64,000 nt of DNA from Mesorhizobium loti R88b. Its GTDB lineage: Bacteria > Pseudomonadota > Alphaproteobacteria > Rhizobiales > Rhizobiaceae. How positions within the stretch are numbered: the stretch's first letter is position 1; every line of letters starts with the position of its first letter. This document shows positions 15,902 to 37,360 of this stretch, piece by piece. A model generated the notes under the pieces. It had not been told where the DNA came from. It did no database searches and was given only the letters and a program-made list of their open reading frames with translations. Made by a program: the position numbers and the translations under genes. The stretch covers positions 6,697,001 to 6,761,000 of the forward strand of contig NZ_CP033367.1 in assembly GCF_013170845.1 (NCBI RefSeq), read 5' to 3'.

Positions 15902-16266
15902 TCAGTCGAGGCCCAACCGGCGTCGGATGACATAGCGGGCGAAGGCGGCGATCTCCTCATGGATGAAAGTCGGCAGGACGAGCCCGCAAAACAGCCCGTC
16001 CGACCGCAGCGCCTCGACAATTTCCTGGCGATCGACGCCGGCAAACATCGTGTCGTGGGCTTTTTGCGACACGCGAACCGGCTTTGCCCCACGCCAGTGC
16101 ATCCGGCGGGCCGGCATGGTGCGGGCGAGCACGAACATCGGCAGCCAGGCGGGGTTCTCGCGAATGTCCGACAGATAGGTCGGAATGCGCACGGCGATGC
16201 GGCGCAGCACGCCGCCGTTTCGCGCGATGGCCTCGAGACTGGCGGCGCCAGATTTGTCAGGGCTCG
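15902..16266 (-). pseudogene. Truncated copy of phytanoyl-CoA dioxygenase-like gene
   Basis: The minus strand encodes the same first ~105 residues as the intact gene at 36386-37360 (LRRIAVRIPTYLSDIRENP through HEEIAAFARY) with only a few changes, then switches to VIRRRLGLD and stops. The Fe-binding HxD and distal His of the enzyme are absent, so this copy cannot be catalytic. Confidence 0.88.
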
Positions 16267-16431
16267 GCCAACAGACAAACCGCGCCGGCCGACAGGGCGG
16301 CGACCGTCAGCAGCCGACAGGCTGCCCGCGCCAGGGGGCGAAGCCGGATGGCCGAGACCGCCTGAGCCTGGCGAAGAAAAAGCGGGCTCGGTTCACGAGC
16401 ACCCGGCACGCGCCGTCAGGCGCGCGGGCGC
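15933..16431. repeat. Deleted copy of a 37.0-41.4 kb segment
   Basis: 15933-16266 aligns without gaps to 37017-37350 and 16267-16431 aligns to 41201-41365. The join (GGCTCG then GCCAAC) therefore represents a precise loss of the 3,850 bases that lie between them in the other copy, including the ParB, DUF2958 and ArdC genes. The breakpoint shares only a 2-bp CG microhomology. Confidence 0.85.
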
Positions 16432-17585: not shown

Positions 17586-20500
17586 TCAGCTTGTTCGGCG
17601 TTTGGTGTTTCGCGGACGCTCTGCTGACGTCGGCTGGTTTTCGCGATCCTTGGTGGTCAATTGCTGCGGACCGACAACGGACTTGCGGCCACCTGCAATG
17701 GGCAACTTCATCTGCGGGGCACGTCGAACCTCTTCCGGCGTCGGACGACGACGTGGCTTTCTTGTCTTCAGACCGGATTTGGCGTGCTCGTTGAATGCCT
17801 CACGCGCCAGATTGAGTTCTAGGAGATTTGCCAGGGCTTCATCTTCAGAGATATCCGCAGGCCAACCGTAGGCTCCGGCAACGGCGGCATCCAGGTCCGA
17901 GTGGGCGTCGACCAGCCACTGCGGACGCCGGTTGTAGAGGTTGGTCAGGGTACGGTCACGCAGGATTGCGTCCGACGCGATGTCCTTCGGAAGGATTCGA
18001 TCCGGATAGCCGGGCACGACCTCGGGCTTGATCTGGACAAGGTCGCTCGGATTGAGCCACGCGTTTCGTATGTCATCAAGTCTCTTGGCCGCCTTTGATA
18101 TGGCGATGGCTCGTGAATCCTTTTCATATCGGACAGCTGGGATATCCGGCGTGAGGCCCTCGGGGAACGGGAAGGTCTCGAATACCCCCGCACTATTGTA
18201 GGTTGGATCATTGCCGACGCCGTGCCACGAGCAAGTTCCGAAGCTCCAAGCCTCATGAAATCGGGAGTGAAGAATCCCGAAAAAGACATCGTCTGAGCGA
18301 GAAAACGCGAAGATGCGGGAGTCGGGCACTATCGCTTGATCAAGCCACACGAATGTCCGATGCTTTGCGACGCGAGGTGTTGCCATGTAACGCGAGTGGC
18401 CCTGCAAGGAAGCGTGAAAAGCCGGTCTCGGCTCCACGTGTCGCCACCAACGCTCGCGGTAGGCATCACGCCTGTTCTTTGAGCGCTCCGGAAACACATG
18501 CTCTCTAATGTGCTGGAACGGCGCCTCGTAGAGGGCAGCCTCCTGCTCGGACATCTCCCAGCCGAAATCCACAATCCACATGTCGCGGCCGCGGCGAGCG
18601 ACGTCCATTCCATTGCGCCATGGACGGAGCACATCTGAGTTTGGCCTACCGTTGGGATTCATCGGCATCGAGAGCCAGGCCCGCGCCAAGCTACCCGGGA
18701 CGTCGAAGGCACCGCCCTTCGTGTCGCCCATGAACGCTACGTTCTGGTTTTCAGACAGCCTGCGCGCCTTGGTCAAGTCGGTTACGCCGGCGGTAAGATC
18801 TGCGTTTATCTGTGCAACCGTCCTCCCATCGAGGCACAACGGGTCCTCGCCGTGGCCGAAGCAGATTAGGGATACTCGTACGGCTGCGCCATCGACGACC
18901 CACGGCTCGTCACTCCAGGCTTCGAATAGCCGGCTTTCGGCGATGATCCGATCCAACACCCTTCTGTTCGCTCCACCGCGTATGGAATTCGTCGTGACCA
19001 GACCCACTCGACGCGTTCGATCTGCTGCGACAGCGGCGCGGGATTTCTCCACCCAATAGCAGACGAGATCAGCCTCGCGAGAGACGCGCCCATCGTACAC
19101 ATCGAAAAGGCGATCAACCGTTGGATCGCCCAAGGCTTGCCGCATCAAACGCACGCCGACAAACGGCGGATTTCCTACGATGAATTCTGCTTCTGGCCAT
19201 TCTGCTTCAGCATCTTCCGAGACTGGTTGCAGTGCAGCAAGAAGGTCTCCTTGTGCGTCACGAGCTGTATCAACGTCTTGGGCCTGCCTGACCAAGGCGT
19301 CTCGCCTTTCGATTGCATCTAGCTTGCGTAGGATTGGTATCGATTTCGAGCGTATCCCATTCTTGATCTGCCACTGAATGTCTCCGATCCAAATGGTCGT
19401 GCGTGCAAGCTCGGCCGCCATCATGTTGATTTCGATGCCGCGCAGGATTTCAGGCCCTACGAGCGGAAGCTGAGCGGGCATGCCGAGCATCTCGCAGTCG
19501 AGGTTGGCGCGGTGTTCGATATCCTTCACACCCTGGAGAGCGAGGTATAGGAAGTTTCCAGACCCGCATGCCGGATCCAGGATGCGGAGCTTTCGCAGCC
19601 GTTCCGTGAACCGGGACCGTACTTCGGCGGCCGCTTCCTCCCGCTTCATCCGGCGGGATTGCTGCCTGCGCATTGGCGGCTTGCGATTGCCATTCAGGAG
19701 TTCGACAATCTCCCGCCTTGCTTGTTCCCATTCCTGTCTCAGAGGCCTCAGGATGACCGGATCGACAAGACGCATAATTTTTTCTGGATCGGTGTAGTGC
19801 GCGCCGATCTGGGCGCGTTTTTCCGGGTCCAGAAACCGCTCGAACAGAGTTCCGAAAATCGTCGGATCGATGAGGCCCCAATCGAGGCTGTCTGCGGCGA
19901 CAAGCAAACCAATGTCACCGTCATCGAGCCGTAGCGCTCGGCGACCATCAAACAGGCCGCCGTTGAACCATGTGATGTCGGTCAGGTCGAACTCGCCGCC
20001 GCGCTCCATTGCTTCAAACAGCTTGTCGAGGTAGCTCATGGCTCGTTCAGGAGCACGGGCCGATCGCTTCAGGAGCTTCGTGAACAGGCCATCAGGCAGC
20101 AGGCTGACACTCTGGGCGAAAAAGCAAAAGACCAGCTGATTTACGAAATGAGCAATCTCATCTGGTGTGCCTCGCCCCTGAACGCGGAGTGCGATCGCGG
20201 AAAACTTGTCTGCTGCCTCCTTGGTGACCGCCGCGCGTGTTCGGGTCGGCCTCAGCTTTTCCGGGCTGAAGAAGACGTTGTGCAACATCTCACGCGCTGA
20301 AGGTTCCGCGAGGTCATCTAGGGTGATCACGTATGTGGACGGAACGGTGTTCGTCCAAGCGGTATGGATGCGAAGGCGTTCGATGTCGCAAACGATGTGT
20401 AGCGGCGGGCTCAAAAGCGCCGGCGCGTATCGCATCAACTGGAGGAGGGCCTCGTCGAGGTTTCCCTTCTTACGCTTGTACTCCCATGCGAAGTGACCCT

Positions 20501-20732
20501 TCTTCCAGACGTCAGCAAAACCTTTACCCCCTCCGAGCTTGTTCGCACCTTTCTCGAACGCGAAGAACGCGCCGGTCGGGTCCTCATCGCTCGGAGACGG
20601 ATGGCCGACCAGCGAGCAGATATCGAGGAAGTGTTCTTGAGCTGCCTGCCGCTCGCCAAGTTCCGACTTCCTCCACTTCTTGATGAAAGCAGCAGGCGTT
20701 ATGGGCGTGAGCCCTGCGGCACCCAGACTCAT
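17586..20732 (-). CDS. MmeI-like (type IIL/IIG) restriction-methylation enzyme
   Basis: 1048 residues, close to the size of single-chain type IIL enzymes. The N-terminal ~200 residues carry a PD-(D/E)xK nuclease core (GFADVWKKGHFAWEYKRKKG, with E-x-K). A helical linker leads to the gamma-type N6-adenine methyltransferase: motif I LRILDPACGSGNFLYLAL and catalytic motif IV IVGNPPFVG. The C-terminal ~350 residues would hold the target-recognition domain (FGTCSWHGVGNDPTYNSAGV region). One protein would both methylate and cut DNA, so no separate partner is needed. Intact, alone in its transcript, at the left edge of the defence-type island. BREX PglX is the main alternative but is longer and needs partner genes not present. 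Confidence 0.85.
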   Translation of the reverse strand: MSLGAAGLTPITPAAFIKKWRKSELGERQAAQEHFLDICSLVGHPSPSDEDPTGAFFAFEKGANKLGGGKGFADVWKKGHFAWEYKRKKGNLDEALLQLMRYAPALLSPPLHIVCDIERLRIHTAWTNTVPSTYVITLDDLAEPSAREMLHNVFFSPEKLRPTRTRAAVTKEAADKFSAIALRVQGRGTPDEIAHFVNQLVFCFFAQSVSLLPDGLFTKLLKRSARAPERAMSYLDKLFEAMERGGEFDLTDITWFNGGLFDGRRALRLDDGDIGLLVAADSLDWGLIDPTIFGTLFERFLDPEKRAQIGAHYTDPEKIMRLVDPVILRPLRQEWEQARREIVELLNGNRKPPMRRQQSRRMKREEAAAEVRSRFTERLRKLRILDPACGSGNFLYLALQGVKDIEHRANLDCEMLGMPAQLPLVGPEILRGIEINMMAAELARTTIWIGDIQWQIKNGIRSKSIPILRKLDAIERRDALVRQAQDVDTARDAQGDLLAALQPVSEDAEAEWPEAEFIVGNPPFVGVRLMRQALGDPTVDRLFDVYDGRVSREADLVCYWVEKSRAAVAADRTRRVGLVTTNSIRGGANRRVLDRIIAESRLFEAWSDEPWVVDGAAVRVSLICFGHGEDPLCLDGRTVAQINADLTAGVTDLTKARRLSENQNVAFMGDTKGGAFDVPGSLARAWLSMPMNPNGRPNSDVLRPWRNGMDVARRGRDMWIVDFGWEMSEQEAALYEAPFQHIREHVFPERSKNRRDAYRERWWRHVEPRPAFHASLQGHSRYMATPRVAKHRTFVWLDQAIVPDSRIFAFSRSDDVFFGILHSRFHEAWSFGTCSWHGVGNDPTYNSAGVFETFPFPEGLTPDIPAVRYEKDSRAIAISKAAKRLDDIRNAWLNPSDLVQIKPEVVPGYPDRILPKDIASDAILRDRTLTNLYNRRPQWLVDAHSDLDAAVAGAYGWPADISEDEALANLLELNLAREAFNEHAKSGLKTRKPRRRPTPEEVRRAPQMKLPIAGGRKSVVGPQQLTTKDRENQPTSAERPRNTKRRTS

Positions 20733-21089: not shown

Positions 21090-22115
21090 TTAATTGCCTT
21101 CGTGATGCCCCTCGGCGGCCAGCTTCTGCTTGCTCTTGCGTACTCGGATCTCGATACGACGCCTTTCTGGAGCGTCGCCTGACTGAGCTCCATCCGTGAG
21201 GCGATCATCCGGCAGGATCAGTTGGCCGCCTGACATGGGTAGGATGTTCAAATGATCAAACGCCGGTATCTTTTTCAGAACGGACGCGACGGATATCGCT
21301 CGCGCGAGGCCTAGCCCGGCATTATCACCCGGCTCCATTTCGCTGACGCTCTCATCCCCAGAGAGTACGCGCCCCAGAACGAAGTCCATGTTCGACTGCC
21401 TCGACAATCGCTGCTCGTCAGTGTGGCCAATGACCTCGACGACATCGACATCGTATTTTGCGACGATATCGGCAATCTGCTCGGCAATAGCGCCCTCAAG
21501 CTTGGCCTTAAAGGCCGGTTTGAGTTCGGCACTGCTGACTTCGAAGGAATAGCCCTTGGCTTCGCTCAGATTGATGATCGGTGGCAGATCCTTAGGCTGC
21601 CGTGTCGTTTCAGCGAGTTCCTTTTCGGCTTCAGCCAGCTTCCGTTCGGCTTCGGTCGCACGCTGATCTGCTGAGACTAGCTTGCGTACGTCGTCGGCTG
21701 AGAGATTGTTGTCTCGGACCGCGACTGTGGCTTCCGCCAGCTGAACTGCTTCGTCGGCCGACAGTCCCTTTTGCTCGATCTGCTCGATCGCTTTTTTGGC
21801 GAGGACGAGCTTTCGCCATTCCTCATCAGGCACTTTGTGCCCAGTGAACCGCTCCATGAGCTCGGCAACCTGGGCCAGCAGGTTCTTGTTCTCCTGCTTG
21901 AGTTGCTGAACCACTGCTTCGCTGCGGGATACCCTTTCAAGGGCAGTTTCCAATTCGGCCTTCTTCTTTGCGACAATGGCGCCTGCAACCAACAGCAGGC
22001 AGAAGACGAGCAGGAGCATCGTTTCGGCCATGGTGAGCCCGAGGATCAAGCCGCGGGCATAGCCTTTCTTTTCGTAGCCGACCGAAGCTCCGCCGGGTTC
22101 GTTCAGCGCCACCAT
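21090..22115 (-). CDS. MotB/ZorB-like membrane protein with OmpA peptidoglycan-binding domain
   Basis: 341 residues. One membrane helix at ~22-49 (GLTMAETMLLLVFCLLLVAG) with an acidic residue, Glu31, at the position where MotB and ZorB carry the ion-binding Asp. A long charged coiled coil follows (~50-185), then an OmpA/MotB-type domain (~190-330) with VIGHTDEQR and a closing RRRIEIRVRKS. This order is that of a stator B subunit anchored to peptidoglycan. Its start overlaps the end of the upstream four-helix protein gene by 13 bp. Last gene of a four-gene operon. Family assignment rests on architecture and short motifs. Confidence 0.78.
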   Translation of the reverse strand: MVALNEPGGASVGYEKKGYARGLILGLTMAETMLLLVFCLLLVAGAIVAKKKAELETALERVSRSEAVVQQLKQENKNLLAQVAELMERFTGHKVPDEEWRKLVLAKKAIEQIEQKGLSADEAVQLAEATVAVRDNNLSADDVRKLVSADQRATEAERKLAEAEKELAETTRQPKDLPPIINLSEAKGYSFEVSSAELKPAFKAKLEGAIAEQIADIVAKYDVDVVEVIGHTDEQRLSRQSNMDFVLGRVLSGDESVSEMEPGDNAGLGLARAISVASVLKKIPAFDHLNILPMSGGQLILPDDRLTDGAQSGDAPERRRIEIRVRKSKQKLAAEGHHEGN

Positions 22116-23365
22116 CTCGGCCTCGGCTGGACTTTCTCCACGATCGGCTGGGAGGCCTGCTGCCCGGCATCAGCGCCGTTGGCTGTTGCCGTTGCGCCTG
22201 GCTTCTCACCCTGCGCAGTTGCCGCCGAAATGGGGATGAAGATGGGAGGTTCAACAGACGGTTCATTGGCGTGCAAAGGTGCAACCGGAGGAATTTCGTG
22301 CGGGACGGACACACGATCGCGATCGAGGATGCGGGATAGCAGGTTCGTCGTACTGGCGTTTTGCTCAGCCTGCTTCTCAAGCCTCTCCAGGAGGAGCTTC
22401 TGATGCGCCGCCATCCTCAAGACGGTATCCGAAAGCTTGTCGGTCCTTTCCCCCTGCTCTTTGGAAAGCGCCTCAGCCCGCTCGGTGAACCTTCCGACAG
22501 ACGCTGCAAGCACCTTGAGAACTGTGACGACATCCGTCTTGAGGACCTCGTCCGGAATAACCACGTTGGCGAGCTTCCCGGCAACTATGTCGGCCTGCGC
22601 CTCGAACTTCGAGATCGTGCCAGCCATGGAGGCATTCGCCGTGTCGAGCGACGCTGCGACTGTGTCGACCTTTTCAGCGACACCTGAAAACCTGCTTTCG
22701 ATACGGCCGAACGTGTCATCGAGGCTTTTGGCTATCTTCTCCGAAGTCTCCTGGACGGGCTTTATCGCTTTGGCGGCCATACCCTCGAAGGCCTGTCGGA
22801 CCTGATCGCCGTTCTTCTCCGCCTGTCGGGCTATTTCGTCGAAGCCTTCTTCCAACATCTGATTGCAAACCCGGCGGAAGTCGGCGAACTCACGCGCTAC
22901 GCTTTCCATCTCGGTGCGCACGCGACGTGTCATGTCCGCGAGCTCGTGACGGGCAGCCCGTTCCACGTCGGCGGGGTCGCGTCGGACCTGATTGTGGAAG
23001 ATGCGCAGCGCGATGCCTGTGATGGTCGACGTCACGGCAATGCCGAAATTCCTGACGATTTCGTCGGTCGATGCGTCTGTGCCGAACTGGTAAAGCGAGG
23101 TGCCCAGGCTGGAGAGCGTGAACAGGAAGCCCATGTAATAGAGGTTGTCACCTGTCTGCTCGTCGTGAACGCGCAACTTCCCGACGTACCAGGAAAACGC
23201 GAAGTAGCCGATCATGATGCCGATCGGCACCGTTGACGAGATAACGGGGCTTATGCCGGCGGTCTTTGTGACGGCGATGAAAACGCACCCGCCTACCGTC
23301 AGCGCGATATAGAAAGCCTGCGGGAAGATCCACGTATCGAGGAAGGATTGTCTACGCGCGGCCAT
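22103..23365 (-). CDS. MotA/ZorA-like membrane protein with long helical tail
   Basis: 420 residues. Four membrane helices lie near residues 14-34, 38-62, 74-95 and 104-126 (the last two NLYYMGFLFTLSSLGTSLYQ and NFGIAVTSTITGIALRIF look like the pore helices of MotA/TolQ/ExbB proteins). After them a ~210-residue amphipathic, coiled-coil tail (REFADFRRVCNQMLEEGFDE ... KVDTVAASLDTANAS) and a Pro/Ala-rich end. A stator A subunit with a long cytoplasmic tail is the design of ZorA in the Zorya anti-phage system. Overlaps the MotB-like gene, so the two are translationally coupled. Confidence 0.72.
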   Translation of the reverse strand: MAARRQSFLDTWIFPQAFYIALTVGGCVFIAVTKTAGISPVISSTVPIGIMIGYFAFSWYVGKLRVHDEQTGDNLYYMGFLFTLSSLGTSLYQFGTDASTDEIVRNFGIAVTSTITGIALRIFHNQVRRDPADVERAARHELADMTRRVRTEMESVAREFADFRRVCNQMLEEGFDEIARQAEKNGDQVRQAFEGMAAKAIKPVQETSEKIAKSLDDTFGRIESRFSGVAEKVDTVAASLDTANASMAGTISKFEAQADIVAGKLANVVIPDEVLKTDVVTVLKVLAASVGRFTERAEALSKEQGERTDKLSDTVLRMAAHQKLLLERLEKQAEQNASTTNLLSRILDRDRVSVPHEIPPVAPLHANEPSVEPPIFIPISAATAQGEKPGATATANGADAGQQASQPIVEKVQPRPRWWR

Positions 23366-23368
23366 GGG

Positions 23369-24202
23369 TTACATCCCTTCCAGCTTTGTAAAGTCGCTGA
23401 GATTGCCCCCGTTCTCCGAAAACCACTGCGTCCAAAAATTGGCGTGGTCGACGGACGGGAACTTCCTTTCCGGCCTGTTGAAATAGAGAATGGTTACGTC
23501 GGCGCCGAGAAGATCGGTCCTAAAGCGCGAATTCGCTGGGCTTTTCTTGAAGGCGTTGTAGTCGGCGCCCGCTTTGTATTGGGAATAGGCGGGCGTGTTC
23601 TCCATCATGTCCGACACGAGGACCAACCGTTTTGGAACATTGTCGAACATGCCGTTGTCGAACAGGCTGAGCTTCAGTTTCTGGATGCCAGCCATGATCG
23701 GCGACTGATCAGCCTGGCTATCCGCCGGCAAGTGCTCCGGCAGTTCCTTGAGGGGCTTGTCGAAGGCCTCTTCCCAGATTCTCTGATGCTTTCCGGGATT
23801 GCTGGTCCAGACGTCAACCGTTGAGCCGTCTCCCGGATTGCATCGCGCGTACAGCTCTTTCAGGTCGCCAGGCACCGCTGTCAAGGTGCCAACCCAGAGG
23901 TAGCCGCCTTGCTTGATTGAGCCGGCAATCTGCCTGAATTTGTTGGCAAGATCCTCCATGGTCGCCTGCGGGACGGGATCAGAGGTGTCAAAAAGAACAG
24001 CGGTGACGCTGTTCGGTCCCGCCTTTGTCGGGCAGCCCGTCTTTGCGTCTGTTTCCAGCACGTCCCGGGCCTTTACGTTGAGCCAGACGTAGCCGGAAAA
24101 CATTGCGAGCGAGGCAAGTCCAAGCAGGATTGCTCCGACAATCGCTCCAACGCCTTTCCCGCGCGAGCTCCCTGCCCTGCGACGGCTTCTAGGCCTGGCC
24201 AT
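23369..24202 (-). CDS. Membrane-anchored von Willebrand A-like protein
   Basis: 277 residues. A basic N-terminus precedes one membrane helix (~19-42, GAIVGAILLGLASLAMFSGY). The rest resembles a vWA/MIDAS fold: TAVLFDTSDP (first metal loop, D-x-S-like), ADQSPIMAGI (second loop) and LVLVSDMMENT (third loop Asp), in the expected order and spacing. Such domains bind metal and mediate protein assembly. It ends 3 bp before the MotA-like gene and starts inside the end of the upstream gene (14-bp overlap). No other family is suggested. Confidence 0.68.
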   Translation of the reverse strand: MARPRSRRRAGSSRGKGVGAIVGAILLGLASLAMFSGYVWLNVKARDVLETDAKTGCPTKAGPNSVTAVLFDTSDPVPQATMEDLANKFRQIAGSIKQGGYLWVGTLTAVPGDLKELYARCNPGDGSTVDVWTSNPGKHQRIWEEAFDKPLKELPEHLPADSQADQSPIMAGIQKLKLSLFDNGMFDNVPKRLVLVSDMMENTPAYSQYKAGADYNAFKKSPANSRFRTDLLGADVTILYFNRPERKFPSVDHANFWTQWFSENGGNLSDFTKLEGM

Positions 24203-25706
24203 CGAGCGTCTCCGGATACAGCTTGTCGAGGTCGCGATACTTTTCGATCCCGGACTCGCATTCCTTGCCCACCTGCAGCATCTGCTCGTTCAGCGCCTGC
24301 TGGGCCGCGGCAATTGATGAAGCAAGATCGCTATCCTTGATCTCACCATCGTTTTGGACAATGGGCTTGGTCTTTTGGAGTTTAAAGGGCTGGGAGAAGT
24401 GTTTTGGAGCGGGAGTTTTGCGCGCCCGAATGTTTGCTTCGCGGTATTTTGAAAGCAGCTGGTTGCAACTCCTCTCGAGCTGCTCTTGATGTTCATTGAA
24501 CAGAGCCAAAAGCCGCGCACGGCTGGATAGGATTGCAGCGTGTTCTCTCCTACGGCTGCTTAGCCCCTTCAAGATGTCTTCGACCTTGGTATTGTGGTCG
24601 TCGCGCAATTCGATGAGGCGGTCTATGAGGTCGGCTTTGGTATCGGTGTAATCCTGCCGTCTCTCCCGGCGCCTTTTTTCCACGCCGGCATAACCTGGAT
24701 ATGGATCGAGAACGAACCAGCCGTCGATGAAGGCGATGATAGAAAAGAGCAGACCGACCAGGAAGAGCATCCACGATCTCACCTCCTCAAGCCCGAGCGG
24801 GTTATGGAGCATTCTCTGGACCGCAATGTTGCCAGCTCCGTCGGCGAGCGTTCCGCTGACCTCACGATAGTGCGCAAGCAGCAAGTTGATCCCGAGTGCA
24901 ATAGCGGCATAGAGCAGGATGAAAACGGTTCCGACAAGCTTCCCTCCCCAAGACCGATGGGTCACCCAGCGCACGCAGAAGATGGCGAAAATCAACGCGG
25001 ACACGATATTCACGAAGGAAAAGGCGAATGCTTCCGTGGCACCACCGAGGAAGCCTTGGTCGTTGCCCTTGGCCAGAAAGGATCCGTTGAGATACGTCTC
25101 GACCAGCAGGAGGAAAATAAGGAGTGCCACCCTGAAAAGATGGGCTGTTCCTTGCTGCAGCCTGGCAACGCGTTCCAAGCGGTGGTTCTTGCGGAAGCTG
25201 GAAAGCTCCGTGGTTGCCTCGTGAAGGTCGGTTCGCTTGGCGTGAAGGGTATCCAAACCGACCGCTATTTCTCCCTTGAAGTCGGACAGGCTTGAAGTAT
25301 TGGCTTGCTGAAGGAGGCCGAACTGCTCCTCAAGGCCCAGGTTCGCAACGCGGCCGGAGAAGAGGTGAAGCTGATCCTCAAGGATCTGGTGGGCCGCCTT
25401 TTTCTCGTCCTGCACCCTTTCGACGATGGAATGTTCGACCTCGTCGAGGGCCTTGGACGAGGACGATGGCTGGTCTTTTTCGCCATGCGCCGTTCCCTGA
25501 TCGTCGAGGTCCATATCCCGGGCAATCTTGTCGACGTTGAGACTCGGGAAAATGTCTGCCCCCACCCTATAGTCGTGGTTCGCTTCCATTATCCGATTGC
25601 GCAGCTTCTCGAGCGCTTCAAACCTCGCAACCAACGTCTTTACCCCTACGATCCAACCCTGGAAAACACATGCTTGCGGCACGCCGCGCGCTTCAGCGCG
25701 CAGCAA
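24189..25706 (-). CDS. Four-helix membrane protein with flanking coiled coils (unknown)
   Basis: 505 residues, no family I recognise. About 190 charged, helical residues come first, then four membrane helices near 193-213, 226-250, 260-283 and 312-336 (FRVALLIFLLLVETYLNGSF; GGKLVGTVFILLYAAIALG), then a second helical domain rich in Glu, Lys and Arg. First gene of the four-gene operon and overlapping the vWA-like gene by 14 bp. The start could be one of several Met codons within the first ~40 residues. It may form the base or sensor of the membrane complex. Confidence 0.65.
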   Translation of the reverse strand: MLRAEARGVPQACVFQGWIVGVKTLVARFEALEKLRNRIMEANHDYRVGADIFPSLNVDKIARDMDLDDQGTAHGEKDQPSSSSKALDEVEHSIVERVQDEKKAAHQILEDQLHLFSGRVANLGLEEQFGLLQQANTSSLSDFKGEIAVGLDTLHAKRTDLHEATTELSSFRKNHRLERVARLQQGTAHLFRVALLIFLLLVETYLNGSFLAKGNDQGFLGGATEAFAFSFVNIVSALIFAIFCVRWVTHRSWGGKLVGTVFILLYAAIALGINLLLAHYREVSGTLADGAGNIAVQRMLHNPLGLEEVRSWMLFLVGLLFSIIAFIDGWFVLDPYPGYAGVEKRRRERRQDYTDTKADLIDRLIELRDDHNTKVEDILKGLSSRRREHAAILSSRARLLALFNEHQEQLERSCNQLLSKYREANIRARKTPAPKHFSQPFKLQKTKPIVQNDGEIKDSDLASSIAAAQQALNEQMLQVGKECESGIEKYRDLDKLYPETLDGQA

Positions 25707-26042: not shown

Positions 26043-26870
26043 TTGGACAAATCTCGCTACAAAAATCGCTCGGGTCAGGGGCGCAAGGGCAATGGCGTGG
26101 GTCGATCACGCGCCTGGCGTCGCGCAAGCGTGCCGTTGAAACTGGTCTTTCTGACAGTGGCTGCCGCTACCGCCTTAGCCACGCAATCAGCCATGCAGCA
26201 CACCGACCGAATACCAGACATTGGCGTTTCGAACTGGTTCGGGTCGAAGCCGGAGCCGATCGCTGGCGTCGCGTCCGTTATCGATGGGGACACGATCGAA
26301 GTCCATGGCCAGCGGATCCGCTTTAACGGCATCGACGCGCCGGAGAGCAAGCAGTACTGCAGCGACGCCAAGGGATTCGACTATTCCTGCGGGCGCCGCT
26401 CAGCCGACGCACTGGACGCATTTCTAGCGGCCTCCAGGCCGGTGCACTGCACCTTCGTAACTTGGGACCGATATCACCGGTTTGTCGGTGATTGCCAGCG
26501 CGCGGATGGCGTCAGCGTCGCCTCCTGGATGGTCGAGCACGGCCAGGCTCTGGATTGGCCCCGCTACAGCCACGGGGCCTATTCAGCGCAGCAGGCGAAG
26601 GCGGAGGCCGCGAAGCTCGGTCTTTGGCTCGGAACGTTTCAGGCGCCCTGGGAATGGCGGGCTGTGCACGCCGGTGATGCGAGGCCGTCGAGCCAGCCAC
26701 TCGGCATCAGCAGCCGCCCACAGGTAGCGCAAAGCTTTTCATGCCAACCGCGGCGGACATGCTCGCAAATCAGCTCTTGCGACGAAGCCCAATGGTATCT
26801 CAACAACTGTCCATGGGGCGGCAAGCTGGATCGCGATGGCGACGGAATTGCTTGCGAGACACTCTGTTGA
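26043..26870 (+). CDS. Secreted thermonuclease (SNase) with Excalibur domain
   Basis: 275 residues. A basic N-terminus and a hydrophobic segment (~30-48, LKLVFLTVAAATALATQSAM) suggest export or anchoring. The SNase domain spans ~75-205 with VIDGDTIEVHGQRIRFNGIDAPE, the catalytic loop region and a late W-rich part. The C-terminus (~225-275) is an Excalibur calcium-binding domain ending LDRDGDGIACETLC with paired cysteines. The start is TTG-like at 26043. Divergent from the membrane operon. It would degrade nucleic acid outside the cytoplasm. Confidence 0.85.
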   Translation: MDKSRYKNRSGQGRKGNGVGRSRAWRRASVPLKLVFLTVAAATALATQSAMQHTDRIPDIGVSNWFGSKPEPIAGVASVIDGDTIEVHGQRIRFNGIDAPESKQYCSDAKGFDYSCGRRSADALDAFLAASRPVHCTFVTWDRYHRFVGDCQRADGVSVASWMVEHGQALDWPRYSHGAYSAQQAKAEAAKLGLWLGTFQAPWEWRAVHAGDARPSSQPLGISSRPQVAQSFSCQPRRTCSQISSCDEAQWYLNNCPWGGKLDRDGDGIACETLC

Positions 26871-27153: not shown

Positions 27154-27819
27154 TCAATCCGCTGACTCTTGCTTGCCTTGGGTCGTGATCGGTGAGGCCT
27201 CATGCCGTTGACCCATCGCCACAGCACGCCAGTGCATCGCGAGCGCAATAATGCCCGCGAGGGTTAGCGCGCCAAAGATTGTTGGCTCAAGGCCCGGCAG
27301 CACCGTCGCGCTGCCGATACACGGCTTGTCGAGCCCCTTGTCAAATTCAGTGCAGATACGAGCGGGATCGTTCAGCGTCCGGAGCTCCGACCAATCCCAA
27401 AGGCTGGCGCCTGGGTCCTTCTTGCCGTCGTTCAGCATTACCGTCGCGGAGAGAAACGTACACCAGAAATAGACCAGCGCGATCGCGGGCAGCACGGAGA
27501 AAACCACAATCATCGCGCCTTGATAGACGCGGCCTTCTCGCGAGCCCGTCTCGATCGCGTCGAAGCCGACAACCGGTATCCGCGCATGCCAGTGCGAGCC
27601 GCCGCGTGGGGCATAGACGCGTCCAACAAGTGAGGTTAGTGCGAGCAAAATCGAACATATCGGGATTGCGATCATTACTGCAGGCACCCTCGCCTTCATG
27701 ACCAGCTTTGCACCGAAAATCTCTTCCCCGCCTTGCGCTACCACCCAAGAATTCAGGGTGTAGTAGAGAAGCAGCGCACTGAACACAAACCAAACCTTGC
27801 TAAGTTGCGATTGCGTCAT
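27154..27819 (-). CDS. Hypothetical membrane protein with four helices
   Basis: 221 residues from the ATG at 27819, preceded by AGGGGT. Hydrophobic helices near 8-27, 45-65, 100-124 and 190-208 (ALTLAGIIALAMHW). Between the last two is a soluble loop of ~60 residues with Cys at CTEF and PCIG. No family is recognised. It lies downstream of the DUF4403 lipoprotein gene in the same direction and may share its transcript. Confidence 0.6.
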   Translation of the reverse strand: MTQSQLSKVWFVFSALLLYYTLNSWVVAQGGEEIFGAKLVMKARVPAVMIAIPICSILLALTSLVGRVYAPRGGSHWHARIPVVGFDAIETGSREGRVYQGAMIVVFSVLPAIALVYFWCTFLSATVMLNDGKKDPGASLWDWSELRTLNDPARICTEFDKGLDKPCIGSATVLPGLEPTIFGALTLAGIIALAMHWRAVAMGQRHEASPITTQGKQESAD

Positions 27820-27927
27820 TTGCACCCCTTTTTCGTTTGGTGGGCCGTCCCTGGCCTTGGTCAGCGACAGCCTATTTGCACCCATGCATCGTCAACTCGT
27901 GAGATTGCAACTCATTCGGCATACGGG

Positions 27928-29595
27928 CTATTGACCTACTAAATCAGCTGATAGCGCCATATCGAAATTCATTTTGAGGCGCGCACTGGCAATCAGATTT
28001 TTTGGCCCGACAGTGATATCGAGTAGTTCGATCGACGGCGTGTCAGCGGAAATCTTCAATCCCGGAACGTTGGTATTGTGAACGGCCTTCAAAATCTCAT
28101 CGGACGCGTCGTTGAACTGCTTGTTGAGATCGACTCTCGAATGAGCCTCTAAATCTGCCAGGATCTGGGTTTCGAACAGGGATTGTGCAGCCTTCCAGAA
28201 AGCGTTGTCCAGGACGGTCGCGAAATGCAATTCGTTGATGGAGATCGCTGTTCCAGTTTTCTCGACGCGGGGTAGGCCTGAGAGGTAAACCCAGCCGGTC
28301 GTATTCAGGAACTCGCCCGGCAGCTTTGCCTGTACCTTCAAGCCCACCACGACAGAGCTGGCGCTAGGATAGAGGTCAACATCCTCGACCTTCACATCGA
28401 CGGCGCCGGCCGGTGTCTGCTGCTGAAAATCGCGACCCTTAAGGTTCTTTGACAGCTCGTCCAATAGCAATCCGTAGGGAGCAGCTGCTTGCACGGTGAT
28501 ATCGGCTTGACTTCGATCGGCTGATGTTTTGCCCAATGGCGGCAGAGACAGGGACTGTGTGGCAACTGGCTCTGCGGCAAGACTGGTCTTTGCTGCGACA
28601 CGCACGGTCATCTTCATGCCTTGCGCTTCACCGACCAGGCCCGAAAAGCTCGCCGCTGTGGGGACGATGTTGAGATAGACGGGCGTGCTATCCGGGCGGT
28701 CGATCTTGATCGCAATGGCGTGCCATTGGGCCTCAACCTTTGACCGAAGCGCACCACAAGGCAGAGCTTTGGTGATGGCATCCTGTATCTTGGCGCGGTG
28801 GTCATTGATCTGGCCGTTCAACACGTCAGCCAGTCCAAGATTGATTGGCCCTGCGCAGACCTCTGGGTGGCCTAGGCTCCCAAAATCAAAGCCGAGACAG
28901 TTTTTGCCCACGACTTCCACCGAAGCACTGCTCACCCATCTGCCGGTCGGGGTTCCCGTGAGCACGGGGCACCACTTATCGTTCATGTCGAGCTGCAGAT
29001 CGACGCCGGGGACCAGCCGAGCCTCGAAGTTCTTTCCGGAAAGCGAAAGCAGTTTGGCAAGGTCGCCGCCTACGCCGGCCTGACCGCTGACAAACAGCGG
29101 CTGTTCGACGTGAACGCCATTGCCCGCCTGGGCCACGACAAGAGGGCCATCCGTTTTGATGTCAGCGTGCCAATGATATTCGGCGCATTGGTTCGTAGTG
29201 CCAAGGCTCGGAGCGGTAATATCTGGTACTTCAGCGCAAATACGGACACCGATCCAACGGCACTCAGTATGATGTCCCACGTGTCCGGGATTAATATGAG
29301 GAATACCGACACATCCGATTTGACCATCTCCTTGCACTGGAACGGATTGCGGTATCTTCGATTGGGCTGCTTGCACTAGCGTCTCGTACGGGATTTGCGC
29401 CAACAGCGTGAGAACGCTGTCCGACACGGGTGCCGGTGGCACATCGGCAGTGCCACCATGGGGTGGCGCCTGGAAGAGATTTTTTTCGCAGCCCGAAACG
29501 CCAACCAAAATGAGAAGGCCCGGAGCGAACCGACGAGCGGCGGCGGCAAAGTGAGCGACACGCAACTTCGTGTCCGGTCTGGTACGCGCTGTCAT
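27928..29595 (-). CDS. DUF4403 family lipoprotein
   Basis: 555 residues from the second Met (a start 5 codons earlier is possible). A lipobox LILVGVSGC places the mature Cys near residue 35, so it is likely a periplasmic or outer-membrane lipoprotein. The body fits DUF4403: an N-terminal TLLAQIPYETLVQAAQ segment, paired beta-rich halves, and a C-terminal LKISADTPSIELLDITVGP repeat. DUF4403 proteins are thought to have lipid-binding TULIP-like folds; function is unassigned. Divergent from the trypsin-NucA gene across an AT-rich gap. Confidence 0.75.
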   Translation of the reverse strand: MTARTRPDTKLRVAHFAAAARRFAPGLLILVGVSGCEKNLFQAPPHGGTADVPPAPVSDSVLTLLAQIPYETLVQAAQSKIPQSVPVQGDGQIGCVGIPHINPGHVGHHTECRWIGVRICAEVPDITAPSLGTTNQCAEYHWHADIKTDGPLVVAQAGNGVHVEQPLFVSGQAGVGGDLAKLLSLSGKNFEARLVPGVDLQLDMNDKWCPVLTGTPTGRWVSSASVEVVGKNCLGFDFGSLGHPEVCAGPINLGLADVLNGQINDHRAKIQDAITKALPCGALRSKVEAQWHAIAIKIDRPDSTPVYLNIVPTAASFSGLVGEAQGMKMTVRVAAKTSLAAEPVATQSLSLPPLGKTSADRSQADITVQAAAPYGLLLDELSKNLKGRDFQQQTPAGAVDVKVEDVDLYPSASSVVVGLKVQAKLPGEFLNTTGWVYLSGLPRVEKTGTAISINELHFATVLDNAFWKAAQSLFETQILADLEAHSRVDLNKQFNDASDEILKAVHNTNVPGLKISADTPSIELLDITVGPKNLIASARLKMNFDMALSADLVGQ

Positions 29596-29610
29596 GGACA
29601 TCTCCCCCAA

Positions 29611-30018: not shown

Positions 30019-32103
30019 ATGGTTACGACTAATTTGTTCGACGAGCGCCGCCGCGCGGTAATGATTGCGGCTGCAAAACGATGGAAAGCGCAACCCCCAA
30101 CGCCCGCGACGACGCAAGTGACGCCTTCGGAACAGGCGCGCTACGACGCTCGCCGTTCGAGCTTTGATCAGGCGAGTGAACTGAAGGCACAAGGCCGTCT
30201 TCCGGTGTTCGTCGAGCGGAAGATGGGGCCTACCCTTGACTGGTACACCTTGCCGCCAGACGATGCTGCCCGAGCCGCTGGCCGGCCGGTCGCCCGCATC
30301 GTGGCCAACGTCGATCCGAAGGTCGACCCGGTCGGGTTTGCGACCGGGTTCATGGTTTCACCTAACGTTCTTCTGACAAACTGGCATGTGTTTCCGGATC
30401 CCGGCTCGGTACGAGGAACCGGCGCAAATTTTCTTCATGATGAGACGGCATCAGGTGTCGCCCGCGGCATCATTTTCGAGTTTGATCCGGACGCCCTTTT
30501 CTTCTCGGCGGAGGATCTCGATTTCGCGCTCGTCGCGGTGAAGCCGAAGGCAATCACCGGCGAGCTTCTCTCCTCTGTCAACTTCCTGGCGATCAACGGA
30601 TCGCGGTCAAAGATCCTGCCCGGAATGCCTATCCGGATGATCGAATATCCTGATGGCGGGCCAAAACGCTATGCGATGGAGAATTGCCGGCTGCTCGAGC
30701 TGCGGGAGGACGGTTTCCTCCGGTACGAGACCGACACCGAGGAAGGATCGTCGGGCTCGGCCTGCTATTCGGAAATGTGGGAGGTCGTCGGTTTGCACCA
30801 CGCCTCCATTCCAAAAATGCGTGGCAATACTATTCTCAATAAGGACGGTTCGGCATGGTCACCTGGCCAGCCGGATGACGGGATAGACTGGATCGCGAAT
30901 GAGGGTGTGCGCATAAGTGCGTTGGTAAAGGCCTTCGGCGGGCTTGTACCGACCACGCCCGCCTCCAAGCATCTTTTGGACGAATTGCTGGCCAACACGA
31001 CCGATCCTACCGATGAGGTCGCGAAGCTAGCGACGCCTCGCGCGCCAGAAGCCCTTAGTCCTGTGTTACCTGATCCCTCCAAAATTTTCGCAAACACGAA
31101 AGGAAACGTGATGGGCGGCGTTACCATGAATTTTTCCGGACCAGTGACGATTTTCGTTGGTAGCGGTGTGCCGGCATCACAGCTTCCACAGGCGACGGCC
31201 GCAGTCGCGACAGACGAGGCGCTCGAGAAAGCACTGCGCTTCGACCCCAATTACGACGATCGAGAAGGCTACAACCCTGACTTTCTCGAAAACGATATCA
31301 CCGTGCCGCTGCCTCGCATTTCGCAGGAGCGGGACCAGGAGATGTATAAGGAGAATGGCCAGATCGTCGTGCTCAAGTACCATCACTTCAGCCTGGCGAT
31401 GAACGCTTCCCGGCGCATGCAGATGTGGTCGGCGGTGAATGTCGATTACGATGCATCGAAAAGGACCTCCAGCGGCCGCGCCTTCTTCGGTCAAGATCGT
31501 TGGGTGTTTGACCCGCGAATTCCCCAGAAATACCAGTTGGGCGATCCCGACATCTACGCGCCCGCCAAACAGATCGACCGGGGTCATATCGTGCGTAGGG
31601 AAGACAATGCCTGGGGTGATGCGCCGACGGAAATCGAGTTTGCCAATTCCGACACGTTTCACTTCTCAAATTGCACGCCGCAGCACGCGGCCTTCAATCG
31701 CTCCCAACCGGGAAAGCAATGGCCGGGAGTTCAAGGCTTGTGGGGCGGTTTCGAAAACCACATTCAACGCGACTTGCAATCAGGTGACACGCGCGCCTGC
31801 ATCATAGCGGGTCCGATCTTGCACCCGAACGATCCATCCGAAGATTTCGGGACCGGCCCGGTGCAGTATCCTCTTGTCTTTTGGAAAGTGGTTGCGGTCT
31901 CGACGCGCGATACCAATGGGCGCCGGTCGCTACGCACCTACGGCTTCAGGCTTTCCCAAAAGGATGTCGTCGACCGGTTCGGAGTGGAATTCGCGCCCGG
32001 CGAGTATGCACGCTATCAAGTCGCCCTGTCAGCCATAAGCGATGAGGCCGGCGTTATTTTTGACGATGTTCTCTTGCGCGCCGATACCCACGCCGACGCG
32101 TAA
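30019..32103 (+). CDS. Trypsin-like protease fused to NucA-type DNA/RNA endonuclease
   Basis: 694 residues. A trypsin-like domain (~90-300) shows the triad His in VLLTNWHVFPD, Asp in EDLDFALVAV and Ser in EEGSSGSACYSE. A linker with a Gly/Val-rich segment follows (~365-395). The C-terminal part (~430-690) is a beta-beta-alpha metal nuclease of the NUC1/EndoG kind with DRGHIVRREDNAWG (catalytic His) and FSNCTPQHAAFN then LWGGFENHI. No signal peptide is visible. Both active sites look intact. The fusion suggests that the protease part activates or releases the nuclease, a suicide or defence effector design, but this is inference. Confidence 0.86.
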   Translation: MVTTNLFDERRRAVMIAAAKRWKAQPPTPATTQVTPSEQARYDARRSSFDQASELKAQGRLPVFVERKMGPTLDWYTLPPDDAARAAGRPVARIVANVDPKVDPVGFATGFMVSPNVLLTNWHVFPDPGSVRGTGANFLHDETASGVARGIIFEFDPDALFFSAEDLDFALVAVKPKAITGELLSSVNFLAINGSRSKILPGMPIRMIEYPDGGPKRYAMENCRLLELREDGFLRYETDTEEGSSGSACYSEMWEVVGLHHASIPKMRGNTILNKDGSAWSPGQPDDGIDWIANEGVRISALVKAFGGLVPTTPASKHLLDELLANTTDPTDEVAKLATPRAPEALSPVLPDPSKIFANTKGNVMGGVTMNFSGPVTIFVGSGVPASQLPQATAAVATDEALEKALRFDPNYDDREGYNPDFLENDITVPLPRISQERDQEMYKENGQIVVLKYHHFSLAMNASRRMQMWSAVNVDYDASKRTSSGRAFFGQDRWVFDPRIPQKYQLGDPDIYAPAKQIDRGHIVRREDNAWGDAPTEIEFANSDTFHFSNCTPQHAAFNRSQPGKQWPGVQGLWGGFENHIQRDLQSGDTRACIIAGPILHPNDPSEDFGTGPVQYPLVFWKVVAVSTRDTNGRRSLRTYGFRLSQKDVVDRFGVEFAPGEYARYQVALSAISDEAGVIFDDVLLRADTHADA

Positions 32104-33689: not shown

Positions 33690-34664
33690 TCAGCACGCAT
33701 CAGCTCCCGACGCATCCCCGCCGCCCGCGCACCTGTCGGTTGAATCCCGCCGGTCTGTGCCACGCTTGTCAGCGCGTTGCCCCAATCCGGCCGAGCCCGC
33801 GCGCTCCGTCAGCGAGACGATGATTCTGTCGAGGCGGCGGAGCAGATCGTCGTAGGGGACGATGTCCATCATATTCACATATTTCCGCTTGATCACCTCC
33901 AGGTCGAACGATTGGTTCTCGGTGAGCCCGCCCGTGCCGTCCGTTCGGCGATCGCGGCCGAGCAGAAGCAGCGCCTTGGGATTGGTCACCCGGATCTGGA
34001 GGCCGGCGGGAAGTGCTGACCCGTATCGCTTCGACAGTTCGCGCTCCCCCTCAACGCCCCATTTGGAGAGGTGGAACAGGTATTTCTCGGCCTGCATGAT
34101 GGTGCCTGACAGCTCCTTGGTCGGAACGCTGTTGCCACGATACAGGCGTATCTCGAGCAGCTCGCCGAAGGCCTCGACGGCGATGCTGTCGACCCGGTCG
34201 CCGCCAACGACGATTTCGCTGCCGGGCTTCAGCTTTGCAATGCGCCGAAAGATGCTGATATTGCGCTCGGCGACAAAGACCTTCCGGTCCGGCGCGATCC
34301 CCTCCGCGACGATCAGCACATCGTTGTCGATCCCCAGGATCCGCCCGGGAATGCGGTGATATCCGTCTTTTGTGGTCGCGAACCGAAACCGATAGAGCGG
34401 TCGATCGTCCTCGTCCGCCTCGTCGTCGTGAGCGGCACCGTGCGCCGTCTCCGCCACGAGGTCGGAACTGCGGAAGAAGAAGACCCGGCTCAGCGTCACC
34501 TTGCCCGCCGCCTTGAGCTCCCGCGTCACCCAGGCATTGCCACCGAAGTGCGGTTCGTATTCGAGCGTCACGCCCTTGCTGCCGACCTCAACGAAATCAT
34601 CACACGTGCTCCTGCACTGGCTGCCACCATCCTCTTCAACCGGCGCCACGACTAATGGCGACAA
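33690..34664 (-). CDS. Shedu-like (DUF4263) protein with altered nuclease motif
   Basis: 324 residues. The C-terminal half resembles the SduA/DUF4263 PD-(D/E)xK domain: a GELLEIRLY strand (~178-185), a following SGTIMQAEKYLFHLS helix with the conserved Gln, KALLLLGRDRR, and a closing FDLEVIKRKYVNMMDIVPYD then DLLRRLD. The usual E-x-K of the nuclease is E-I-R here (Glu181, Arg183), so activity is uncertain. The N-terminal ~150 residues form a separate, unassigned domain. Starts 29 bp inside the upstream nucleotidyltransferase gene. Shedu is a single-gene anti-phage system; here it is embedded in an operon. Confidence 0.68.
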   Translation of the reverse strand: MSPLVVAPVEEDGGSQCRSTCDDFVEVGSKGVTLEYEPHFGGNAWVTRELKAAGKVTLSRVFFFRSSDLVAETAHGAAHDDEADEDDRPLYRFRFATTKDGYHRIPGRILGIDNDVLIVAEGIAPDRKVFVAERNISIFRRIAKLKPGSEIVVGGDRVDSIAVEAFGELLEIRLYRGNSVPTKELSGTIMQAEKYLFHLSKWGVEGERELSKRYGSALPAGLQIRVTNPKALLLLGRDRRTDGTGGLTENQSFDLEVIKRKYVNMMDIVPYDDLLRRLDRIIVSLTERAGSAGLGQRADKRGTDRRDSTDRCAGGGDASGADAC

Positions 34665-36385: not shown

Positions 36386-37360
36386 TCAGCGAATAACCGG
36401 CTCGCCATGGAAGCGCCGGCGCGAGGGCGGCGAGACGCCGAAGCCGACTTCCATCATCAGCCGTGGCGTGCGCGACGGTACGGTGCCCATATGAAAGCCG
36501 AACGGGTCTTCGACGAAGCCGAGGCCGGCTTCGCCGGTCAGCGTGACGGGGCTGTCATCGCCATAGACCTTGAGAACTTCCTGCGCCGGATGGCCGACAA
36601 GCAGCGTCAGCTGATGCTTGATGGCGCGGCGGTTATGACTGCCCCGCACATAGACATGCGGGCCGGTGCCTTCGTCGACCGGCGTCAGGTAGAAGAAGAA
36701 TTTCAGCATCCTCCAGTCATCGAGATCGAAATGATACTTGCCGAGCGAGGCACGGTTCTTGTCGGCGTCGGAGGCCTGGCCGGTCGGGAAGCTCCACCAC
36801 ACCCGTGTGGTGATCAGTTTCGCCTGAGCGCCCAGATAATGCGCGGCGATGTCGAGCAGCAGCGGGTCGTTCTGGATGGCGACCGCTGCCTTGCAGCCGA
36901 GGATGTGTTCGAAAAAGTGGCCGCTGAGCAGCGAGCGGCCGAAACGCTTCTCGGCCTCGGCATGGTCCTCAGCCATGAATTCGAGACGGCGATCGAAATT
37001 GCCGAAACAAGGCGTGTAGCGGGCGAAGGCGGCGATCTCCTCATGGATGGAAGTCGGCAGGACGAGCCCGCAAAACAACCCGTCCGACCGCAGCGCCTCG
37101 ACAATTTCCTGGCGATCGACGCCGGCAAACATGGTGTCGTGGGCATTTTGCGACACGCGAACCGGCTTTGCCCCACGCCAGTGCATCCGGCGCGCCGGCA
37201 TGGTGCGGGCGAGCACGAACATCGGCAGCCATGCCGGGTTCTCGCGAATGTCCGACAGATAGGTCGGAATGCGCACGGCGATGCGGCGCAGCACGCCGCC
37301 GTTTCGCGCGATGGCCTCGAGACTGGCGGCGCCGGATTTGTCAGGGCTCGAAAGGGTCAT
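36386..37360 (-). CDS. Phytanoyl-CoA dioxygenase-like Fe(II)/2-oxoglutarate oxygenase
   Basis: 324 residues. The 2-oxoglutarate oxygenase fold is indicated by KYHFDLDDWRMLKFFFYLTP (Fe-binding His-x-Asp), EGTGPHVYVRGSHN, the distal His in FGFHMGTVP and the Arg in TPRLMMEVGF that would bind 2-oxoglutarate. The first ~110 residues are an N-terminal extension also found in the truncated copy at 15902-16266. Substrate unknown. It precedes the ParB/DUF2958/ArdC module. Confidence 0.82.
   Translation of the reverse strand: MTLSSPDKSGAASLEAIARNGGVLRRIAVRIPTYLSDIRENPAWLPMFVLARTMPARRMHWRGAKPVRVSQNAHDTMFAGVDRQEIVEALRSDGLFCGLVLPTSIHEEIAAFARYTPCFGNFDRRLEFMAEDHAEAEKRFGRSLLSGHFFEHILGCKAAVAIQNDPLLLDIAAHYLGAQAKLITTRVWWSFPTGQASDADKNRASLGKYHFDLDDWRMLKFFFYLTPVDEGTGPHVYVRGSHNRRAIKHQLTLLVGHPAQEVLKVYGDDSPVTLTGEAGLGFVEDPFGFHMGTVPSRTPRLMMEVGFGVSPPSRRRFHGEPVIR
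37017..37350. repeat. Duplicated segment, left part (copy at 15933-16266)
   Basis: Gap-free match to 15933-16266 with few substitutions; covers the first third of the phytanoyl-CoA dioxygenase-like gene. Confidence 0.88.

What the first reader, a model, noticed from the sequence alone, without database searches (positions are those of the whole stretch)
21090..25706. Four-gene membrane operon resembling a Zorya-type stator with unfamiliar partners
Seen: four overlapping or abutting minus-strand genes (14-bp overlap, 3-bp gap, 13-bp overlap) coding for a four-TM coiled-coil protein, a single-TM vWA-like protein with three MIDAS-like loops, a four-TM protein with MotA/ExbB-like pore helices and a ~210-residue helical tail, and a MotB-like protein with an acidic residue (Glu31) in its one TM helix, a coiled coil and an OmpA domain. 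Known: ZorA/ZorB of Zorya combine a tailed MotA-like and a peptidoglycan-binding MotB-like subunit. Inference: an ion-driven, cell-wall anchored complex in which the vWA and four-TM proteins replace ZorC/ZorD/ZorE. It lies among defence genes. I know no named system with this gene set.
Basis: partly seen in the sequence, partly recalled or inferred. Interest (0 to 1): 0.85.

Follow-up and report, generated by a model that had tools for sequence, protein, structure and literature searches.

The report
Cell-wall-anchored motor with exported nuclease
A set of bacterial genes that looks like an ion-driven, cell-wall-anchored membrane machine often comes with a DNA-cutting enzyme placed outside the inner membrane, sometimes fused to the machine itself, which suggests a barrier against incoming DNA.

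Summary
The four genes are real and form a conserved set: a coiled-coil four-TM protein, a periplasmic vWA protein, a MotA-like protein and a MotB-like protein, in this order in 27 genomes checked (10 families) and 8 plasmid loci. The vWA fold is confirmed by structure prediction. The MotB TM motif GLTxAE with its Glu is near-invariant. The MotA fold rests only on a model resembling ZorA's membrane core; profile searches found no homology.

An exported staphylococcal-type nuclease gene (26043-26870) lies divergent to the operon. This nuclease family is within about 6 kb in 15 of 27 four-gene genomes (about 0.2 expected) and beside the operon in 6 of 8 plasmid loci. In relatives the nuclease is fused behind the OmpA domain of the MotB-like protein: 24 of 97 homologues found carry SNase, 27 of 97 an HNH (GmrSD_C) domain. 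The nuclease would therefore sit in the periplasm.

Best reading: a Zorya-like motor turned outside-in, cutting DNA that crosses the envelope. It fails Zorya membership. The defence role is inferred; enrichment of known defence genes nearby was not significant, and 12 of 27 genomes show no SNase nearby. Nine literature searches listed no paper on this gene set.

The parts
24189..25706 (-). Four-TM protein with long N- and C-terminal coiled-coil parts (505 aa from the listed TTG; in-frame TTG at 25634 gives about 481 aa)
   Evidence: no Pfam or PADLOC family at E up to 1, only chance-level NCBIfam and PHROG matches (0.037, 0.022)
23369..24202 (-). vWA protein: one N-terminal TM helix, then a vWA domain (periplasmic by inference) with D72/D75, S167 and S197-D198 loops and an invariant Cys pair (C57, C121)
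   Evidence: invariant columns in 35 of 35 rows; model and fold matches; no D/E/H in the TM core in 35 of 35 rows, more positive charge on the N side in 34 of 35
22103..23365 (-). MotA-like protein: four TM helices with very short loops, invariant T83, S86 and T114 in TM3/TM4, then a helical tail, cytoplasmic by inference
   Evidence: sequence profiles find no MotA/ExbB homology
21090..22115 (-). MotB-like protein: one TM helix with Glu31 (motif GLTxAE), coiled coil, OmpA-type domain (VxGHTDE ... RRRIEIR)
   Evidence: (OmpA 25.6 bits, cut-off 27.2)
26043..26870 (+). Exported SNase-Excalibur nuclease, divergent from the operon; proposed effector
   Evidence: PF00565 and PF05901 over their cut-offs; N-terminal hydrophobic segment (the same ORF in L005); conserved D.DT..R..GIDAPE residues
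25707..26042 (.). Intergenic stretch between the divergent nuclease gene and the operon, where both promoters would lie
   Evidence: ORF coordinates; promoters not tested

Best explanation
It is a five-part envelope machine. The MotA-like protein (pore ring with a cytoplasmic tail) and the MotB-like protein (TM Glu31, coiled coil, peptidoglycan-binding OmpA domain) form an ion-driven, wall-anchored complex. The four-TM protein and the periplasmic vWA protein are its partner module, the vWA domain gripping a ligand through its metal site. The effector is a nuclease on the periplasmic side, either secreted from a neighbouring gene or fused behind the OmpA domain. Most likely, disturbance of the wall by an injecting phage or a mating channel triggers the motor, and the tethered or recruited nuclease cuts the DNA while it crosses the periplasm. 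SHOWN by computation: the parts, their linkage and the fusions. INFERRED: topology (from charges, Cys pair, signal-like N-termini), 5:2 assembly, ion flow, triggering, and the DNA-barrier role.
For: The four genes keep one order in the 27 genomes (own included) and 8 plasmid loci checked. All 13 strong MotA-like matches in 297 genomes of the order lie beside a vWA match. SNase within about 6 kb of the vWA gene in 15 of 27 four-gene genomes against 0.18 expected, and in 7 of 17 outside the own genus against 0.11. SNase beside the operon in 6 of 8 plasmid loci. Of 97 MotB-like homologues listed, 24 carry SNase (one is the query itself) and 27 GmrSD_C; 23 of 24 keep the SNase active-site pattern and 26 of 27 a DH[LIV][VI]P motif. 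The two fusion loci opened carry the whole operon (L123, L124). Net positive charge before the TM in 90 of 90 MotB-like N-tails tested. Sporadic spread: 20 of 119 genomes of the genus, 24 plasmid records.
Against: No function was tested. MotA homology is not visible by profile, and Foldseek E-values for its model are not significant. Known defence genes are not significantly enriched nearby: about 7 of 120 neighbours against about 2 of 120 controls, P 0.17. 12 of 27 four-gene genomes have no SNase nearby; one of them, G414, has the HNH fusion instead. 2 of 8 plasmid loci show no SNase. 46 of 97 homologues carry neither nuclease domain. The nuclease gene varies in position and strand. The counting distance was chosen after seeing the data, and the genomes are not independent. 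No match in the phage collection.
Confidence: 0.5

Rival explanations
1. Zorya-like system with cytoplasmic output: the motor signals inward through the MotA-like tail, the four-TM/vWA pair replaces ZorC/D/E, and the exported nuclease is an incidental neighbour.
For: Long helical tail as in ZorA (PMC11890865, section 6 part 1 and section 10 read). 12 of 27 genomes and 2 of 8 plasmid loci have no SNase nearby.
Against: SNase proximity far above chance and 51 of 97 listed MotB-like homologues carrying a nuclease domain. No nuclease or other catalytic family in the four-TM and vWA proteins.
Confidence: 0.13
2. Exclusion system of large plasmids and islands: the same machine is aimed at conjugating DNA from competing elements rather than at phages.
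For: 24 plasmid records, 11 typed conjugative. Two four-TM/vWA pairs without motor genes lie beside VirD4/TraG-type coupling proteins (L074, L127).
Against: Not confined to plasmids: copies lie on contigs of 7.2, 6.9 and 4.1 Mb (own genome, G050, G085). The coupling-protein neighbours belong to the pair-only form, not the five-part one.
Confidence: 0.17
3. Scavenging system: the ion-driven complex helps bring extracellular DNA through the envelope and the nuclease degrades it for phosphate or nucleotides.
For: Exported nuclease plus a motor of the TonB/ExbBD kind would fit; a gene annotated as ComEC lies about 6 kb from the operon in one plasmid locus (L160).
Against: Sporadic presence (20 of 119 in the genus). 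No TonB-dependent receptor or nucleotide transporter is named in the 8 annotated plasmid loci; genome neighbours were not searched for these.
Confidence: 0.1
4. Envelope-maintenance machine with no role against foreign DNA; the nuclease merely cleans the periplasm of stray DNA.
For: vWA proteins paired with 5:2 motors have been proposed as force transducers (PMC12204202, passages).
Against: Accessory distribution, plasmid carriage, and the fusion of nuclease domains to the wall-binding subunit in relatives.
Confidence: 0.1

Closest known systems
Zorya (ZorAB motor with ZorCD or ZorE)
   Same: Tailed MotA-like and peptidoglycan-binding MotB-like subunits with a TM carboxylate; a nuclease as effector; here too among defence genes in this window.
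   Different: No ZorA/ZorB family hit at curated cut-offs; Glu instead of Asp in the TM; vWA and four-TM partners; nuclease exported or fused on the periplasmic side, whereas Zorya recruits it in the cytoplasm.
vWA force transducers paired with TolQ-type motors (PMC12204202, passages read)
   Same: TM-anchored vWA protein encoded beside a 5:2-type motor gene.
   Different: Here the vWA TM core has no His or acidic residue (0 of 35), the pore partner is a separate OmpA-type MotB, and a four-TM protein and a nuclease are added.
SNIPE membrane nuclease (PMC13190303, passages read)
   Same: Membrane-located nuclease that cuts foreign DNA while it enters.
   Different: SNIPE is a single DUF4041/GIY-YIG protein with the nuclease on the cytoplasmic side; here SNase or HNH domains sit on the periplasmic side with a motor. 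A DUF4041 protein that matches PADLOC PD-Lambda-1 lies beside this system in L153; that PD-Lambda-1 and SNIPE are one system is recalled.
MotAB / TolQR / ExbBD 5:2 motors
   Same: Model of the MotA-like membrane part aligns with TolQ, ExbB and PomA chains.
   Different: No profile homology to 34 PF01618 proteins; only a few residues between TM2 and TM3, where MotA has a large cytoplasmic part (recalled).

Membership tests
Zorya | ZorA family protein | tested here: not met
   NCBIfam ZorA_1 11.7 bits against cut-off 190, ZorA_3 8.3 against 250; PADLOC ZorA matches (best 2e-6) start at residue 134 or later, the tail, not the TM core
Zorya | ZorB family protein with TM Asp and OmpA-type wall-binding domain | tested here: inconclusive
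   PADLOC ZorB1 8.1e-7, best of two stretches 191-276, the OmpA part; OmpA domain present; the acidic residue is Glu in all 94 of 97 homologues where the motif was found, never Asp
Zorya | ZorC/ZorD, ZorE or other named Zorya partners | tested here: not met
   vWA and four-TM proteins match 0 PADLOC families at E up to 1
5:2 ion-driven motors | MotA/ExbB-type membrane fold | tested here: inconclusive
5:2 ion-driven motors | conserved TM carboxylate in the B subunit and Thr/Ser in TM3/TM4 of the A subunit | tested here: met
   Glu31; T83, S86 and T114 invariant in 22 of 22 rows
5:2 ion-driven motors | 5:2 stoichiometry and ion flow | not testable with these tools
   no complex prediction or experiment available
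vWA domain | vWA fold with MIDAS-type loops | tested here: met
   first loop is D-x-[ST]-D rather than the classical DxSxS (recalled)
vWA force transducers of PMC12204202 | SHLS/His motif or pore Asp in the vWA TM helix | tested here: not met
   0 of 35 TM cores contain D, E or H
SNase nuclease | family match and active-site residues | tested here: met
   PF00565 34.1 bits, cut-off 21; D[GA]DT ... R..G[IV]DAPE visible in 18 of 18 aligned proteins by eye

The most novel reading that the evidence does not exclude
An outside-in immune machine: a peptidoglycan-anchored, ion-driven rotary complex that carries its nuclease in the periplasm and mechanically brings it to DNA crossing the envelope, destroying phage or plasmid DNA before it reaches the cytoplasm. 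To my knowledge it would be the first immune system to place a motor-coupled nuclease outside the inner membrane.
Probability: 0.38. Interest if true: 0.93.

Novelty: new variant of a known kind. Interest (0 to 1): 0.8.

Why it matters
Zorya is described as a unique case of a flagellar-type motor used in immunity (PMC11890865, section 10), and how the motor drives its effector is open. A system in which the nuclease is covalently tied to the wall-binding subunit makes that testable, because the place of the effector is fixed by the fusion. It also points to the periplasm as a place where bacteria could cut foreign DNA without harming their own chromosome, and offers a testable role for genes now mostly annotated as hypothetical.

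Tried and rejected
Homology of the MotA-like protein to PF01618 by profile: local and global hhalign of its membrane part against 34 PF01618 proteins gave no hit. PDB profile searches gave coiled coils and other helical matches outside the membrane part for the full-length profile (best 60 of 351 seen) and nothing for the membrane part alone. By Foldseek E-value no row is a safe MotA match. The full-length vWA profile found no PDB sequence match of note.

Weak MotA-like matches in 33 genomes (E above 1e-6) cover tail positions (139 onward) only and were dropped as coiled-coil noise; the 13 strong ones were counted.

Defence-island enrichment: 120 neighbour ORFs of 20 of the 27 loci against 120 ORFs from one other region of the same 20 genomes. 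140 were picked in each set (ORFs over 1100 aa excluded) and I dropped one per locus, mostly the farthest, in some cases the longest, to meet the residue limit. PADLOC at 1e-30 gave 19 against 4 matching families. The tool does not give the number of proteins; I estimate at least 7 against 2 from the model names. Fisher P 0.17: not significant.

Other nuclease types in loci without SNase: Pfam scans of some neighbours found none. Most neighbours were not scanned. G005 has an Excalibur-domain ORF near its operon.

Long ORFs that run over real genes (898 aa in L064, 499 aa in L065) were read as overlong high-GC frames, not as fusions.

tRNA genes as an island border: none in the window.
Full report
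WHAT IS THERE. The window lies in a 7.2-Mb genome; loci encoding an identical or nearly identical vWA protein are in Mesorhizobium loti, M. helmanticense and M. erdmanii. None of the four proteins reaches a curated cut-off in Pfam or NCBIfam. The MotB-like protein has an OmpA match just under its cut-off (25.6 bits, cut-off 27.2), and the MotA-like tail gives coiled-coil matches only.

CONSERVATION. In 297 genomes of the order 22 have the vWA protein and 13 a strong MotA-like match, all 13 beside it. I opened 21 of the 22 (the other, G083, lies at a contig end): 13 have four-TM, vWA, MotA-like and MotB-like genes in that order, and 8 have only the four-TM/vWA pair, one of them (L080) with a rhodanese gene between. 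Further loci give 4 more four-gene genomes, 3 pair-only ones and 2 with an OmpA protein, a five-TM protein and a vWA protein, and then 10 more four-gene loci. In all, 27 four-gene genomes in 10 families were checked, the own one included; two (G209, G537) carry near-identical loci. Eight plasmid loci also have the four genes in order. The vWA protein is in 20 of 119 genomes of the genus, 4 of 119 and 2 of 120 in two other families and 13 of 398 across the phylum; these samples overlap. It is on 24 plasmid records and on no phage record.

THE MISSING PART. The divergent gene at 26043-26870 is an SNase-Excalibur protein with an N-terminal hydrophobic segment. The same family lies beside the operon elsewhere, upstream, downstream or divergent. 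Mapping SNase in 44 genomes: within about 6 kb of the vWA gene in 15 of 27 checked four-gene genomes and in 0 of 13 others (11 pair-only, 2 OmpA/five-TM/vWA). Chance gives 0.18 (Poisson P 3e-24); outside the own genus it is 7 of 17 against 0.11, P 3e-11. The distance was set after looking, and relatedness is not corrected. Of 24 plasmid records I read 8: an annotated thermonuclease lies by the fourth gene in 6 (L153, L154, L155, L156, L159, L160) and not in 2 (L157, L158) (confirmed by profile). The fourth gene is named OmpA family in 6 of the 8. All 18 SNases aligned, one of them the fused one, keep the active-site pattern.

FUSIONS. In L124 the MotB-like protein (588 aa) ends in an SNase domain; in L123 (601 aa) it ends in an HNH-type GmrSD_C domain. 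Both loci carry the other three genes in order. A search with the L124 protein listed 97 homologues (7990 candidates scored, a capped set): 24 carry SNase, the query's own record included, 27 carry GmrSD_C and 46 neither (counted from its Pfam column; the query favours SNase-bearing proteins, not HNH-bearing ones). One of the 46, P0253, has a weak SNase match. The few with names are Rhodobacterales genera as far as I recall. Two unrelated nuclease folds on the same subunit argue that cutting DNA is the shared job. N-tails before the TM motif are net positive in 90 of 90 tested, of 97, so OmpA and nuclease domains should face the periplasm.

HOW IT MOST LIKELY WORKS. By analogy with Zorya, where wall binding by ZorB, ion flow and the ZorA tail are needed and a nuclease in the cytoplasm is the effector (PMC11890865, section 6 part 1 and section 10 read), disturbance of the wall would start the motor. 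Here the output is on the other side: the nuclease, secreted or tethered, meets DNA in transit. SNIPE is a precedent for cutting phage DNA at entry, on the cytoplasmic side (PMC13190303, passages). A DUF4041 protein matching PADLOC PD-Lambda-1 sits beside this system in Sinorhizobium fredii (L153); DUF4041 is the SNIPE domain, and that PD-Lambda-1 is SNIPE is recalled. The vWA/four-TM pair may grip or gate something in the envelope. It occurs without the motor genes, and two of the three such loci whose neighbour I scanned in Pfam (L074, L127; not L080) have a VirD4/TraG coupling protein there, which suggests a role of its own.

DEFENCE SETTING. The window holds an MmeI-like type IIG enzyme (17586-20732) and a Shedu gene (33690-34664). 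A controlled count over 20 loci was not significant. Defence therefore rests on distribution, anatomy and single contexts, and plasmid exclusion is a serious rival.

AGAINST KNOWN SYSTEMS. It fails Zorya membership on ZorA and on partners, and is inconclusive on ZorB. It is not one of the vWA transducers of PMC12204202 (passages): the vWA TM core has no His or acidic residue in 35 of 35 rows. The passages seen of PMC12505986 on MotAB relatives name no such set. Nine literature searches over open PMC papers listed nothing with this gene set; two searches showed 20 of 135 and 20 of 43 papers, and preprints and most subscription journals were not covered.

Noticed in passing
window 15933-16266 and 37017-37350; 16265-16431 and 41199-41365: Two direct repeats (97.6% over 334 bp, 98.2% over 167 bp) bracket the block with the type IIG enzyme, the operon, the nucleases and Shedu; related copies occur in many genomes of the genus. 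They may mark an accessory block. The right flank 27154-29610 has long matches in only 3 of 41 genomes of the genus.
   Followed up: partly
window 30019-32103: Trypsin-like domain fused to a DNA/RNA non-specific endonuclease, a second nuclease near the operon; no obvious signal peptide at its start (by eye).
   Followed up: no
L074:6919-8544 and L127:8080-9891: Four-TM/vWA pairs without motor genes lie beside VirD4/TraG-type coupling proteins (PF02534 2.9e-68 and 2.4e-37).
   Followed up: no
L128:9687-13602 and L129:956-4987: Outside the class, a three-gene set of OmpA protein with glycine zipper, five-TM protein and vWA protein, with no MotA-like match.
   Followed up: partly
L062:6452-7651, L146:12972-14180, L150:12657-13835: A gene directly after the MotB-like gene in several loci of the own genus; DUF4236 was matched in L146 and in L121, the twin of L062; the L150 gene was not scanned in Pfam.
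   Followed up: no
L006:8838-10092: The MotA-like gene of this copy lies in two frames (213 and 260 aa), a frameshift in the strain or in the assembly.
   Followed up: no
L123:11787-14027: Neighbouring 746-aa protein with weak TOP6A/Spo11 Toprim and HATPase matches, no PADLOC family at 0.001.
   Followed up: partly
L072:11989-13089 and L148:13930-15027: Similar-sized proteins (366 and 365 aa) with exported-looking N-termini and no Pfam family, near operons that lack a nearby SNase or have it about 5 kb away.
   Followed up: no
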